Shown here: positions 15,832 to 22,392 of the stretch, one piece after another
Layout of the letters: each line of letters opens with the position of its first letter
Numbering within the stretch: position 1 is the first letter of the stretch
NCBI GenBank assembly: GCA_016199495.1
Contig: JACQGQ010000037.1
Location: 1 to 37,009 of the forward strand
Direction: 5' to 3'
DNA from: Chloroflexota bacterium
Lineage (GTDB): Bacteria > Chloroflexota > Dehalococcoidia > Dehalococcoidales > UBA2162
DNA: 37,009 nucleotides
The notes under the pieces: generated by a model
The model's database searches: none
What the model was told of the DNA's origin: nothing
The model's input: only the letters and a program-made list of their open reading frames with translations
Translations under genes and position numbers: made by a program

Positions 15832-18624
<2,793 letters not shown>

Positions 18625-18745
18625 CTTAGCTTGTTTATTAACCCACCCTCCGACCCCCTTACCCAATGTAGTGTCTTATAAGTTCATTGAATAATTCTTC
18701 TCACTTTCCTAAAGGGAGACTGAGAAGGATTTCTCTTTAAGCAGT

Positions 18746-18982
18746 CGTCAAAATCCCCCTTAATCCCCCTTTGGCAAAGGGGGAGACGAAAGAGATTAAA
18801 GCAACTTATTTACGAGACAGACTCCTAGTAGGGAAGGGAAACTCTAAGAGAGGTGAAGCCCCTCTTATATATCCAAAGCCCCTTCTCCTTAAGGGGGAGT
18901 CTGAGAGGGGCTTCGCCCCTCTCAAAAATCACTTTCCCTTCCCCTTAAAAAGGGGAAGGGGATAAAGGGGATAGGGTTATAG
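18746..18982. repeat. Nested-palindrome intergenic element, copy R6 (diverged/mosaic)
   Basis: cccccttaatccccctttggcaaaggggg ... gagaggggcttcgcccctctc ... ccttccccttaaaaaggggaaggggataaaggggatagggttata. Confidence 0.8.
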
Positions 18983-19008
18983 TAAAAATAAAAGGGTGAA
19001 AGGGTTGC

Positions 19009-19038
19009 TTGACAAGGCAGAATGGCCTTTGCTATAAT
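19009..19038 (+). promoter_or_regulatory. Sigma70-type promoter for the HTH-PIN operon
   Basis: TTGACA (19009-19014), 18-nt spacer, TATAAT (19033-19038), perfect consensus hexamers; ggagg SD and ATG 19076 downstream. Confidence 0.75.
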
Positions 19039-19041
19039 ATG

Positions 19042-19056
19042 GTTGTAGACTACAAC
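19042..19056. promoter_or_regulatory. Candidate operator palindrome
   Basis: GTTGTAG-A-CTACAAC, perfect 7-bp arms, immediately downstream of the -10 box. Confidence 0.6.
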
Positions 19057-19075
19057 TATATTTCTGGAGGATAAG

Positions 19076-19573
19076 ATGACCAGCCAAAGAGAAGATGACT
19101 TAATCAGTGTCCGGGAAGCCGCCCGGGAGTGCGGGCGGAATATGGAAACTGTCCGCCGCTGGATTTGGGGCGGCAAATTGCCCGCCCAAAAGCTCGGTAA
19201 CCAGCTTTTCATCAAGCGGAGTGACTTCGCCGGCTTTTGCCGCGAGACGGCTATCCGGGAATACGAAGCCAAACCCAGGCCCGATTTTCCGGAGCGGGCG
19301 ATAGTTTTTCAAGAAAGACTGAAAGCCAAGGGAGTCAAGCCAATCGATACCGCCGAAGAAATTCGTAAGATGCGGGAGGAGCGTATGAATGAACTGGAAC
19401 AGCGTTTGCCTCAACCAGAAACCATGGTAAAACCGGGGAGTAAGGCTAACCTCATTAAGAGAATGCGGAAGCTGCGTGAAAGCATACGTACCAGGGTCGG
19501 AAACCTGGATGCGGCCGGGACGATAGAACAACTTCGTGAGGAGAGAATGAATGAACTCACGCGTCTGCGTTGA
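19076..19573 (+). CDS. MerR/excisionase-like HTH protein, probable antitoxin of the PIN toxin
   Basis: ISVREAARECGRNMETVRRWIWGGKLPAQKLGNQLFIKRSDFAGFCRE HTH; C-terminal helices with repeated (M/L)REERMNEL; overlaps the PIN gene by 23 nt. Confidence 0.75.
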   Translation: MTSQREDDLISVREAARECGRNMETVRRWIWGGKLPAQKLGNQLFIKRSDFAGFCRETAIREYEAKPRPDFPERAIVFQERLKAKGVKPIDTAEEIRKMREERMNELEQRLPQPETMVKPGSKANLIKRMRKLRESIRTRVGNLDAAGTIEQLREERMNELTRLR

Positions 19574-19994
19574 TGCCAGCCTAGCCGTGCAATGGCTGAT
19601 ACCGACACAACAGGACCCGCTAGCAGAGTCTTTACTGCAATCGTGGGACCAGGCCGGGACTGAACTCATTGGTCCGCCATTATTTGATGCTGAGGTAACT
19701 TCAACTATCAGACGGCACGTGTATTTTAAGAAACTTCTGCCGGCGCAAGGGGAAAAAGCCTTTTTGTTCTACCACGAGCTAGCTGTGAAAATTGTCAGTC
19801 CGCCTGAGCTTCCCCGGATAGCCTGGCAACTGGCACAGGCATTCAATCTACCGGTATGCTATGATATGCACTACCTGGCCGTGGCCGAGCTTGAGGACTG
19901 CGAACTGTGGACGGCCGATAGCCGACTGGCTAACTCCCTGAAAGGCAAGAATAAGCGGCTAAGATGGTTGGGAGACTACGCTAAGAAAACCTGA
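19551..19994 (+). CDS. PIN-domain (VapC-like) toxin/ribonuclease
   Basis: VCVDASLAVQWLIP, PPLFDAEVTSTIRR, LPVCYDMHYLAVAELEDCELWTADSRLANSL: acidic PIN motifs. Confidence 0.85.
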   Translation: MNSRVCVDASLAVQWLIPTQQDPLAESLLQSWDQAGTELIGPPLFDAEVTSTIRRHVYFKKLLPAQGEKAFLFYHELAVKIVSPPELPRIAWQLAQAFNLPVCYDMHYLAVAELEDCELWTADSRLANSLKGKNKRLRWLGDYAKKT

Positions 19995-20027
19995 ATACTG
20001 CTGTGGAGGGTGAGAAGAGGAGTATAT

Positions 20028-21017
20028 ATGGGGAATCACATATTCCTTGCCAGTAAAGATAATTTTGAGAAATGCCTTGAATATGGAGTGTATGGCGGTA
20101 TTTCTCATTCCTTTGAAAGGACTAATTCAGAAATTATATCTGGGTTTGAAGCTATAAGACCAGGAGACTTCATATTCTTCTACGTTAGAAATACAGGTAT
20201 ATACGGCTTATGGAAAGCAACGAGCAGGCCCTTTCTTGATCGAGAGCGCAATGTGTGGGGAAGAAAAGACCAGCTTTACCCTTATAGAGTTTGCTTTGAG
20301 CCTTCGATAAGAGAGTTCCGCAAACCAATTGCTTTGAGTGATATCTTGGACCTACGAGACAAAGGCAAGATATGGACTTTTGACCTAGGGACTTTTACTA
20401 AGAAGAGTCATCAACCTATAACAACGGAAGAGGGAAAAGAACTAATCCGCCTTCTGCTGAGGAACAATCCTATTTTCCATTCGCTTAGGCAAACATCGAA
20501 CCCGTTTTTAGCCAGAGAAGAGGCTCTCCCGCTGAAACTTGAAACGAATAGCAAGGGACAAATAAGAATAGAAGGTTATCTAAATGCTTGGTTTATGCGT
20601 TCTTTTGCTCAAGGGAAGCTTAAAAGTCTTATCGGCGAGTATTACGATTTTCTAAATTACGTCCCTACTTCTTTCAATACAGTGATGGATATTTTCCTCA
20701 CTCACGTCACCTCGGTTGACGGTGTCGATGTGCTTCATAACTTTACTTGTATTGAGTTGAAAACTGGAATATGCGTAGAAGATAATCTGAATCAGATTAT
20801 TAAATACGAGAATTGGCTTGTCAGAAAACTTGCCAGTGGGGATAACGAAATGGTTCAAAGTATATTGGTTGGCTTTGACTTCGATGACAAAGTTCTAGAG
20901 TATGTACAGAAGCGAAGACTTATAGAGGAGAAAACGGTCAGGTTATTAAAGTATAGGGTGAACAGCGAACAAAACGACCTCATACTAACCGAGGTAGAAT
21001 TCGATAGAAGAGCTTAG
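20028..21017 (+). CDS. EVE/PUA-like domain fused to a PD-(D/E)XK-type nuclease-like domain (candidate modification-dependent endonuclease)
   Basis: N-term MGNHIFLASKDNFEKCLEYGVYGGI ... FEAIRPGDFIFFYVRNTGIYGLWKATSRPF ... YPYRV resembles the EVE fold; C-term GYLNAWFMR ... MDIFL ... FTCIELKTGICVEDNLNQIIKYENWLV carries a D-(x)n-ExK-Q-x-x-x-Y pattern. ATG 20028 with upstream gaagaggag SD preferred over the 20010 ORF start. Confidence 0.6.
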   Translation: MGNHIFLASKDNFEKCLEYGVYGGISHSFERTNSEIISGFEAIRPGDFIFFYVRNTGIYGLWKATSRPFLDRERNVWGRKDQLYPYRVCFEPSIREFRKPIALSDILDLRDKGKIWTFDLGTFTKKSHQPITTEEGKELIRLLLRNNPIFHSLRQTSNPFLAREEALPLKLETNSKGQIRIEGYLNAWFMRSFAQGKLKSLIGEYYDFLNYVPTSFNTVMDIFLTHVTSVDGVDVLHNFTCIELKTGICVEDNLNQIIKYENWLVRKLASGDNEMVQSILVGFDFDDKVLEYVQKRRLIEEKTVRLLKYRVNSEQNDLILTEVEFDRRA

Positions 21018-21019
21018 TC

Positions 21020-21490
21020 ATGGAGAACAAAACATTCGTCATAAATTATGAAGCCTCAGACGAAACTATACATAAGTTCGCCGCGACTCTCCTTTTGAGT
21101 AAGTATGAGTCAGAACTTATACTCACGCAGGGCAAATACGCTTACAAAGTCAAGAGTGGAAATGGTGGGCATCTGTACTATAAGAAAGGCAATACTGGTG
21201 AATGGGTCTTGATTGCAAACTGGTGTTTCTACGGACTTTACATTGTAGTGCGCTACAGAAAGCCAGTCTGGCTGAGACCAATGTACGAAACTTTATTTGC
21301 TGGAATGAACTTTGTCGCTACTATTTTTGATGAACATAGCATCGAAATAGTAGGCACGGATGGGCAAATCTTACGAAGCAGGAGATTTCGTCTCAGCCCT
21401 CCTTCAGCTTTGGACAAGGTTATGTCAGAAAAATTCGGCTATGCCGAAGAGAAAATCCTGCGCCTTAAAACAGAACTTGAATTAGATTAG
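21020..21490 (+). CDS. Conserved-looking protein of unknown function, coupled to the EVE-nuclease candidate
   Basis: 156 aa; ATG 2 nt after the upstream stop; no family recognised. Confidence 0.65.
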   Translation: MENKTFVINYEASDETIHKFAATLLLSKYESELILTQGKYAYKVKSGNGGHLYYKKGNTGEWVLIANWCFYGLYIVVRYRKPVWLRPMYETLFAGMNFVATIFDEHSIEIVGTDGQILRSRRFRLSPPSALDKVMSEKFGYAEEKILRLKTELELD

Positions 21491-21524
21491 TAATGACCAA
21501 TAGTGAAATCACCCAGGGTATCTA

Positions 21525-21791
21525 ATGGATGTAGTCATTAGCGACCATGCCCGCTTTGAAATAGTTCGCCGTCAGCTTTCAGAAGAAGCGGTCAGAAATG
21601 TTGCCGAAAATCCACAGCAGGTGGTTAAATTGAAAAAGGAACGCAAGGTCTACCAGAGCAGATACTATGACCCAACTGAAGATAAAGAGATGATTTTGAG
21701 AGTAATCTGTGAAGAAAGGCTCAACCAGCTTTTTGTAGTTACCGCTTACCGAACTTCAAGGATTGACAAGTACTGGAAGAAGGAGGGCTAA
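21525..21791 (+). CDS. DUF4258-like protein (putative toxin)
   Basis: 88 aa; SDHARFEIVRRQLSEEAVRNVAENPQQVV ... KVYQSRY ... ILRVICEERLNQLFVVTAYRTSRIDKYW. Confidence 0.7.
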   Translation: MDVVISDHARFEIVRRQLSEEAVRNVAENPQQVVKLKKERKVYQSRYYDPTEDKEMILRVICEERLNQLFVVTAYRTSRIDKYWKKEG

Positions 21792-21792
21792 C

Positions 21793-21996
21793 ATGAAAGT
21801 GATTTATGACTCAGATACCGATACCTTAAATCTTTTATTCAGGGACGAGCCTGTCGCCGAGAGTGATGAACTCAGGGAAGGTTTAATCATTGATTACGGT
21901 TGCGATGGAAAAATCGTCTCCGTTGAAGTTTTGGATGCGTCTGAACACGTTACCGAGCCACAGGGTATTACCTACGAGCTACGAGGTCGCCATTAG
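21793..21996 (+). CDS. DUF2283-like protein (putative antitoxin partner)
   Basis: MKVIYDSDTDTLNLLFRDEPVAESDELREGLIIDYGCDGKIVSVEVLDASEHV; ATG 21793 directly after the DUF4258 stop. Confidence 0.8.
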   Translation: MKVIYDSDTDTLNLLFRDEPVAESDELREGLIIDYGCDGKIVSVEVLDASEHVTEPQGITYELRGRH

Positions 21997-22008
21997 GGAT
22001 TAGATAAC

Positions 22009-22392
22009 ATGACCAACACTGAGATTGCTCAGGTATTGGCTGATATTGCCGACCGGCTGGAGCTAAGGAAGGATAACTGGTTCAAGATACGGGCTTACCG
22101 CAAGGCGGCTGGCTCTATCGGAGAACTGCCAGTGGCGGTGGAACAACTGGTCAGGGAGGGACGCTTAAAGGAAATCCCGGGGGTGGGGGAGGCTATCACC
22201 AAGAAGATTACCGAGCTGGTAACCAGCGGGCGCCTTGAGTACTATGAGAAATTGAAAGCGGAGATGGCTGGGGTAAAAGTTAATTCGCCTGTCATTACGA
22301 GGAACGCAGTGACGAAGCAATCCGTAAAATCATACGGATTGCTTCGCCCCGATTTCATTGGGGCTCGCAATGACAAATTAGGAAAAACCTGA
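22009..22392 (+). pseudogene. Truncated PolX-type helix-hairpin-helix N-terminal fragment, C-terminus encoded by an inserted repeat
   Basis: NTEIAQVLADIADRLELRKDNWFKIRAYRKAAGSIGELP ... GRLKEIPGVGEAITKKITELVTSGRLEYYEKLKAEM matches the PolX/HhH N-term; from 22290 the frame is repeat DNA (VITRNAVTKQSVKSYGLLRPDFIGARNDK). Confidence 0.7.
22290..22375. repeat. Second palindromic repeat family (TGTCATTRCGAG ... CGAAGCAATCCGTA inverted repeat)
   Basis: Left TGTCATTACGAGGAACGCAGTGACGAAGCAATCCGTA; right end reverse complement TGTCATTGCGAGCCCCAATGAAATCGGGGCGAAGCAATCCGTA. Confidence 0.85.

What the first reader, a model, noticed from the sequence alone, without database searches (positions are those of the whole stretch)
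20028..21017. Candidate EVE-like reader fused to a PD-(D/E)XK nuclease: possible modification-dependent restriction enzyme
The N-terminal about 150 aa read as an EVE/PUA-fold (FEAIRPGDFIFFYVRNTGIYGLWKATSRPF...YPYRV). The C-terminal part has a nuclease-like E...D...FTCIELKTG...NQIIKYENWL pattern. EVE domains are known readers of modified bases in type IV-like restriction contexts, so the fusion suggests cleavage of modified phage or host nucleic acid. Its neighbours are TA genes, consistent with a defence locus.
Basis: partly seen in the sequence, partly recalled or inferred. Interest (0 to 1): 0.75.

Follow-up and report, generated by a model that had tools for sequence, protein, structure and literature searches.

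The report
Modified-base reader fused to DNA nuclease
This gene joins a domain that senses chemically altered DNA bases to a DNA-cutting domain and sits in a chromosomal slot where related bacteria keep swapping restriction genes, so it is probably a bacterial defence against viruses with modified DNA, of a kind already predicted but little tested.

Summary
Window 20028-21017 (+) encodes a 329-aa protein under strong purifying selection. An AlphaFold2 model (pLDDT 88.6, pTM 0.89) has an N-terminal EVE domain (nearest PDB: PH1033, 5mC-bound THYN1, VcaM4I) and a C-terminal PD-(D/E)XK domain (nearest: NucS/EndoMS). E182, D221, E243-x-K245 and Q256-x3-Y260 are conserved in relatives spanning several bacterial phyla and archaea. 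EVE-PD(D/E)XK proteins were catalogued in 2020 as putative type IV restriction enzymes, so this is a new member of a known kind.

New here is the context. The gene lies between secA and polX, a site that is empty in about 60% of sampled order members. In the others it holds exchangeable cargo: BsaWI-like, TdeIII-like or HNH restriction-modification, other EVE fusions, toxin-antitoxin pairs. In a same-family genome the same slot holds a BsaWI-like endonuclease plus methyltransferase.

A divergent branch (4 of 4) carries an adjacent N4/N6 DNA methyltransferase and looks like a type II system. The window's clade has no intact one, only remnants, which favours a stand-alone modification-dependent (type IV) enzyme. 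Cleavage specificity and the role of the downstream 156-aa gene remain untested.

The parts
20028..21017 (+). EVE-PD(D/E)XK fusion, 329 aa: predicted modification-dependent restriction endonuclease
20028..20471 (+). EVE (PUA-superfamily) reader domain, residues 1-148
   Evidence: Pfam EVE above cut-off; profile match to PH1033 over 1-143, E 4.7e-12; model and Foldseek
20565..20993 (+). PD-(D/E)XK nuclease domain, residues 180-322, NucS/EndoMS-like
20571..20573 (+). E182, predicted motif I acidic residue
   Evidence: invariant in 19 sequences
20688..20690 (+). D221, predicted metal-binding acidic residue (motif II)
   Evidence: nearly invariant in 19 sequences, invariant in the 16 close ones
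20754..20762 (+). E243-L-K245, predicted (D/E)XK motif
   Evidence: E243 and K245 invariant
20793..20807 (+). Q256-x3-Y260, QxxxY motif seen in NucS/RecB-like PD-(D/E)XK nucleases
   Evidence: invariant
21020..21490 (+). 156-aa partner of unknown function, 2 bp after the nuclease stop
   Evidence: no Pfam, NCBIfam, PADLOC or PHROGs match; in other genomes found only behind EVE-family or HNH nuclease genes, or their methyltransferase, wherever the upstream gene is visible
19076..19573 (+). HTH_17 protein, putative antitoxin of the upstream pair
   Evidence: Pfam 2.3e-9
19551..19994 (+). PIN-domain protein, putative VapC-like toxin
   Evidence: Pfam 2.4e-8
21525..21791 (+). DUF4258 protein, putative toxin of a second TA-type pair
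   Evidence: Pfam 3.7e-8; TA role is an inference
21763..21996 (+). DUF2283 protein, putative antitoxin of the second pair
   Evidence: Pfam 7.2e-16; TA role is an inference
15832..18624 (+). secA, left border of the variable slot
   Evidence: conserved left flank across the order
22009..22392 (+). polX N-terminal (HHH_8) remnant, right border of the slot
   Evidence: Pfam HHH_8 3.3e-19, PolX model 3.7e-10; conserved right flank

Best explanation
The protein is most likely a stand-alone, NTP-independent modification-dependent (type IV-like) DNA restriction endonuclease. The EVE domain would flip out and bind a modified base, most plausibly a cytosine derivative, in incoming phage or plasmid DNA. 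The NucS-like PD-(D/E)XK domain (E182/D221/E243/K245) would then cut nearby. Shown here: the two folds, the conserved catalytic residues, purifying selection, horizontal spread, no intact methyltransferase beside the window-clade genes examined, and a position in a slot used for restriction systems. Inferred: DNA (not RNA) as substrate, dependence on a modified base, which base it is, and the anti-phage role.
For: EVE + PD-(D/E)XK model with high confidence and matches to THYN1-5mC DNA, VcaM4I, NucS/EndoMS and MspJI. Invariant active-site residues. dN/dS 0.044. Patchy distribution over Chloroflexota, Zixibacteria, Armatimonadota, Ignavibacteriota, Hydrothermota and archaea, with a Methanoperedens sequence nested among Chloroflexota. 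None of the window-clade loci examined has an intact adjacent methyltransferase: L007 has a truncated one, and L010, L011, L013 and L019 have remnants. The secA-polX slot: at least 20 of 49 non-preselected sites carry an insert over 700 bp, including BsaWI-like, TdeIII-like and HNH restriction enzymes with methyltransferases. Same-family genome L101 keeps the HTH-PIN and DUF2283 flanks but has a BsaWI-like enzyme plus methyltransferase inside. Precedent: PMC7641849 (EVE-PD(D/E)XK as putative type IV enzymes), PMC7897488 (EVE-HNH VcaM4I flips 5mC).
Against: The divergent branch (L042, L043, L044, L192) has an adjacent N4/N6 methyltransferase in 4 of 4 cases, as a type II system would. The window genome holds at least five N6_N4 methyltransferases elsewhere, so a distant protecting partner is possible and host DNA is itself probably methylated. 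The base-binding pocket was not compared residue by residue with VcaM4I or THYN1.
Confidence: 0.62

Rival explanations
1. It is a type II-like restriction enzyme that cuts unmodified DNA at specific sites and is blocked by methylation; the window clade has lost its adjacent methyltransferase and relies on one encoded elsewhere. The EVE domain would then supply site recognition or sense the protecting mark.
For: Four divergent members sit beside an intact or near-intact N4/N6 methyltransferase. The methyltransferases of L042 and L192 are 72-78% identical to ones paired with a BsaWI-like enzyme (L101) or an HNH enzyme (L085), so the EVE nuclease takes the endonuclease place of a type II system there. 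The window genome has five or more such methyltransferases.
Against: The close clade is spread over many phyla without a conserved methyltransferase. The methyltransferase remnants beside it resemble those of BsaWI-like systems, and L011 also has the 5' part of such an endonuclease upstream, so they are better read as debris of displaced systems than as a lost partner. An unprotected type II nuclease moving alone would be lethal.
Confidence: 0.2
2. It targets modified RNA, or acts as an abortive-infection toxin that cuts host nucleic acid when triggered, with the downstream small gene as inhibitor.
For: EVE-like domains also bind modified RNA (YTH matches; PMC7641849). TA-type genes flank it, and a small gene follows it closely.
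Against: The same small genes (the 156-aa gene, or the 71-81 aa gene) also follow an HNH restriction cassette, other EVE fusions and an ATPase gene, so they are not specific inhibitors of this nuclease. The nuclease domain's nearest solved relatives are DNA nucleases. TA genes sit in the same slot without it (L084, L092, L096).
Confidence: 0.11
3. It is a DNA-repair enzyme of NucS/EndoMS type that uses EVE to find damaged or mismatched bases.
For: The nuclease domain's best PDB matches are NucS and EndoMS.
Against: Sporadic presence (11 of 156 genomes of the order match the family profile, several of these only over the EVE part), horizontal spread, and a place in a restriction-gene slot do not fit a housekeeping repair gene.
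Confidence: 0.05

Closest known systems
Predicted EVE-PD(D/E)XK type IV restriction endonucleases (Bell, Wolf and Koonin 2020, PMC7641849)
   Same: Same two-domain architecture, same predicted reader-plus-nuclease function, defence context with TA genes.
   Different: The main text read here gives no member with this secA-polX location, 156-aa partner or methyltransferase-paired branch; accession-level comparison was not possible (supplements not available).
VcaM4I, EVE-HNH modification-dependent endonuclease (PMC7897488; PDB 6yex)
   Same: N-terminal EVE reader, C-terminal nuclease, about the same size (309 and 329 aa), stand-alone gene; Foldseek E 3.3e-4 on the EVE part.
   Different: HNH instead of PD-(D/E)XK nuclease; VcaM4I is experimentally characterised, this protein is not.
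NucS/EndoMS endonuclease (PDB 2vld, 5gke)
   Same: PD-(D/E)XK catalytic domain fold with ExK and QxxxY motifs.
   Different: NucS lacks the EVE domain and is a mismatch-repair endonuclease; identity 18-19% over about 110-118 columns.
MspJI family (SRA plus PD-(D/E)XK; PDB 4f0p)
   Same: PUA-superfamily reader plus PD-(D/E)XK nuclease in one chain; weak whole-chain match (E 8.1e-4, prob 0.66).
   Different: SRA rather than EVE reader; poor superposition (rmsd 21), so only the architecture is alike.
BsaWI-like type II restriction-modification (PF18643 plus N6_N4 methyltransferase)
   Same: Occupies the same chromosomal slot in relatives; its methyltransferase type also accompanies the divergent EVE-nuclease branch.
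   Different: The endonuclease is unrelated in domain make-up to the window protein.

Membership tests
EVE domain family (PF01878) | Sequence match above the curated cut-off | tested here: met
   25.2 bits against a cut-off of 23; 18 of 19 members match at E up to 0.01
EVE domain family (PF01878) | EVE/PUA-like beta-barrel fold | tested here: met
   Model pLDDT 88.6; Foldseek PH1033 3.8e-8, THYN1 2.8e-5
EVE domain family (PF01878) | Base-binding pocket residues equivalent to VcaM4I (W82, Y130, E15, P24) | not tested
   Sequence and coordinates of VcaM4I were not available for residue mapping; W116 is invariant and aligns with a conserved Trp of PH1033
PD-(D/E)XK nuclease superfamily | Conserved E, D and (D/E)xK residues | tested here: met
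   E182, E243, K245, Q256, Y260 invariant and D221 nearly invariant in 19 sequences
PD-(D/E)XK nuclease superfamily | Core fold | tested here: met
   Foldseek NucS 2vld 7.2e-4, EndoMS 5gke 3.9e-3
Type IV (modification-dependent) restriction enzyme | No cognate methyltransferase at the locus | tested here: met
   None between secA and polX in the window; none intact beside close relatives. Not met in the divergent branch
Type IV (modification-dependent) restriction enzyme | Cleaves DNA only or preferentially when modified | not testable with these tools
   needs biochemistry
Type IV (modification-dependent) restriction enzyme | Sporadic, horizontally spread distribution in defence-rich loci | tested here: met
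Type II restriction-modification system | Endonuclease gene next to a cognate methyltransferase | tested here: not met
   Not met in the window; met in the divergent branch L042, L043, L044, L192
NucS/EndoMS repair endonuclease | NucS N-terminal domain plus NucS_C match | tested here: not met
   EVE replaces the N-terminal domain; no NucS_C Pfam match in P0001

The most novel reading that the evidence does not exclude
One EVE-nuclease family alternates between two modes: an endonuclease of methyltransferase-paired type II-like systems (divergent branch) and a solitary modification-dependent enzyme (window clade). It is exchanged as a cassette at a shared defence slot (secA-polX), with a swappable small partner gene (156 aa or 71-81 aa) whose function is new.
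Probability: 0.3. Interest if true: 0.65.

Novelty: new member of a known kind. Interest (0 to 1): 0.45.

Why it matters
EVE-PD(D/E)XK enzymes have been predicted, but the papers found here describe experiments only on EVE-HNH enzymes. This compact family has a confident model, clear active-site residues for mutation, and sister branches with and without a methyltransferase. That makes the question of whether a modified-base reader can serve both type II-like and type IV restriction directly testable. The secA-polX slot gives a simple place to look for further restriction genes in this order.

Tried and rejected
Armadillo-repeat matches from phmmer (E down to 7.3e-7) come from short repeats over residues 250-280, each scoring under 9 bits, and were rejected as artefacts. 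Plasmid and phage collections gave no match, and IMG/VR scans with the protein, the family alignment and the partner alignment gave none. The first idea, that the methyltransferase remnants downstream of close relatives are the lost partner of the EVE nuclease, was dropped: intact copies of that methyltransferase sit behind a BsaWI-like enzyme (L106, L109, L117), and L011 also keeps the 5' part of such an enzyme upstream of the EVE nuclease. The structure of the 156-aa partner failed (pLDDT 36, only two sequences allowed), so no fold search was made. Mapping the EVE pocket onto VcaM4I was attempted through related EVE queries, but no alignment with it was returned. The small downstream genes were considered as specific inhibitors and judged unlikely because they follow unrelated genes. 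A two-paper literature search for this slot in Dehalococcoides relatives found nothing on it.

Full report
OBSERVATION. The frame at 20028-21017 (+) is a real gene of 329 codons. The ATG at 20028 aligns with the start of the relatives, and an AGAGGAG lies just upstream. A scan of GTDB species genomes gave 18 relatives at 52-86% identity. dN/dS against the nearest one is 0.044.

DOMAINS. Residues 1-148 are an EVE domain: Pfam PF01878 above its gathering score; the family profile matches PH1033 over residues 1-143 with E 4.7e-12; and the AlphaFold2 model (pLDDT 88.6, pTM 0.89) matches PH1033, THYN1 bound to 5mC DNA, YTH domains and VcaM4I. There is also a sub-threshold match to the related DCD domain. 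Residues 180-322 are a PD-(D/E)XK nuclease: the model matches NucS (7.2e-4) and EndoMS (3.9e-3), a divergent relative matches NucS_C and YhcG_C weakly, and E182, E243-x-K245, Q256 and Y260 are invariant, D221 nearly so, over 19 sequences.

CLOSE CLADE. The window protein groups with Chloroflexota and Zixibacteria sequences; others come from Armatimonadota, Ignavibacteriota, Hydrothermota and two archaeal genomes. A Methanoperedens sequence lies among Chloroflexota, so the gene has moved between phyla and domains. None was found in phage, plasmid or viral-contig collections. Contigs found twice under L and G handles (for example L002 = G323, L003 = G349, L006 = G523, L008 = G502, L009 = G616, L011 = G548, L013 = G154) are counted once.

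METHYLTRANSFERASES. No close relative has an intact methyltransferase next door. L007 has a truncated one, and L010, L011, L013 and L019 keep only remnants. Intact versions of that enzyme stand behind a BsaWI-like endonuclease in L106, L109 and L117. L011 also keeps the first part of such an endonuclease upstream of the EVE nuclease. The remnants are therefore best read as displaced restriction systems. In contrast, four divergent members (L042, L043, L044, L192; 21-28% identical to the window protein) each sit beside an N4/N6 methyltransferase. The methyltransferases of L042 and L192 are 72-78% identical to ones paired with a BsaWI-like (L101) or HNH (L085) endonuclease. There the EVE nuclease takes the endonuclease position of a type II system. 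The tree groups the three of these four that were included, with weak support (75/61).

THE SLOT. The window gene lies between secA and a polX remnant. I located the secA end in the order and fetched the following DNA. Among 49 sites with both borders found and not chosen for their EVE gene, 20 hold an insert over 700 bp and 29 do not. One of the 29 (L084) is miscounted, since it carries a PIN gene. The sites were chosen for available contig length, not at random. Contents include BsaWI-like enzymes with methyltransferases, TdeIII with a methyltransferase, HNH with a methyltransferase, another type II pair, Z1 helicase, a DUF262-like gene matching the PADLOC NsnA model, a HATPase gene, five other EVE-domain proteins of about 290-310 aa (one scanned by Pfam), and HTH-PIN pairs. 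L101, from the same family as the window, has the same HTH-PIN pair on the left and DUF2283 on the right, with a BsaWI-like enzyme and methyltransferase in place of the EVE nuclease and 156-aa gene. This slot-level exchange is the strongest context evidence for a restriction role.

SMALL PARTNERS. The 156-aa gene begins 2 bp after the nuclease stop. In the genomes searched it occurs in six, and in the five where the upstream gene is visible it follows an EVE-family nuclease (window, L002, L055), the methyltransferase of the L042 system, or an HNH gene (L054). A different 71-81 aa gene takes its place in most relatives, including Zixibacteria and archaea, and also follows HNH, ATPase and other EVE cassettes at secA-polX. 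Most copies of both genes start MLDR. They are more likely general cassette accessories than specific inhibitors.

MECHANISM. The best-supported reading is a stand-alone modification-dependent endonuclease: base flipping by EVE as in VcaM4I (PMC7897488), then cleavage by the PD-(D/E)XK domain. Modification dependence, substrate and biological role are inferred. A type II-like mode is the main rival.

NOVELTY. EVE-PD(D/E)XK proteins were reported as putative type IV restriction enzymes by Bell et al. 2020 (PMC7641849), so the protein is a new member of a known kind. The methyltransferase-paired branch, the secA-polX slot and the small partner genes were not found in the text read, but absence from those papers is weak evidence of novelty.

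Noticed in passing
window 18625-22008 (secA to polX): The secA-polX interval is a variable defence slot in this order, holding restriction-modification genes, EVE fusions and TA pairs in at least 20 of 49 sampled sites.
   Followed up: partly
L094, L103, L107, L122, L129: A second EVE-domain protein of about 290-310 aa recurs in the same slot; L122's is EVE 1.6e-6 with a weak PADLOC type II restriction-enzyme match over its C-terminal part.
   Followed up: partly
L003:6997-7224 and equivalents: A 71-81 aa gene (MLDR......DDYYEWLKDNF...) with no Pfam or PHROGs match travels with the EVE nuclease across phyla and also follows unrelated cassettes.
   Followed up: partly
L007:6388-6615 and equivalents: A 75-aa Cys-rich (zinc-ribbon-like) gene follows the nuclease in another subset of relatives.
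   Followed up: no
window 19009-19038: Exact TTGACA and TATAAT hexamers with an 18-nt spacer stand upstream of the HTH-PIN pair; the nuclease could be co-transcribed from it (read by eye).
   Followed up: no
window 22260-22392: polX is cut after about 90 codons, followed by a palindromic, repeat-like stretch (cattacgaggaacgcagtgacgaagcaatccg...cggattgcttcgcc) (read by eye).
   Followed up: no
L008:5556-5996: A stand-alone DCD-domain protein (8.3e-20) lies directly upstream of the EVE nuclease in one relative.
   Followed up: no
L042:3015-3425 and L192:5116-5526: A 136-aa protein with a weak NucS_C match (0.015) and similarity to the C-terminal part of the EVE nucleases precedes the EVE nuclease in the methyltransferase-paired branch; it could be a partner subunit.
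   Followed up: no
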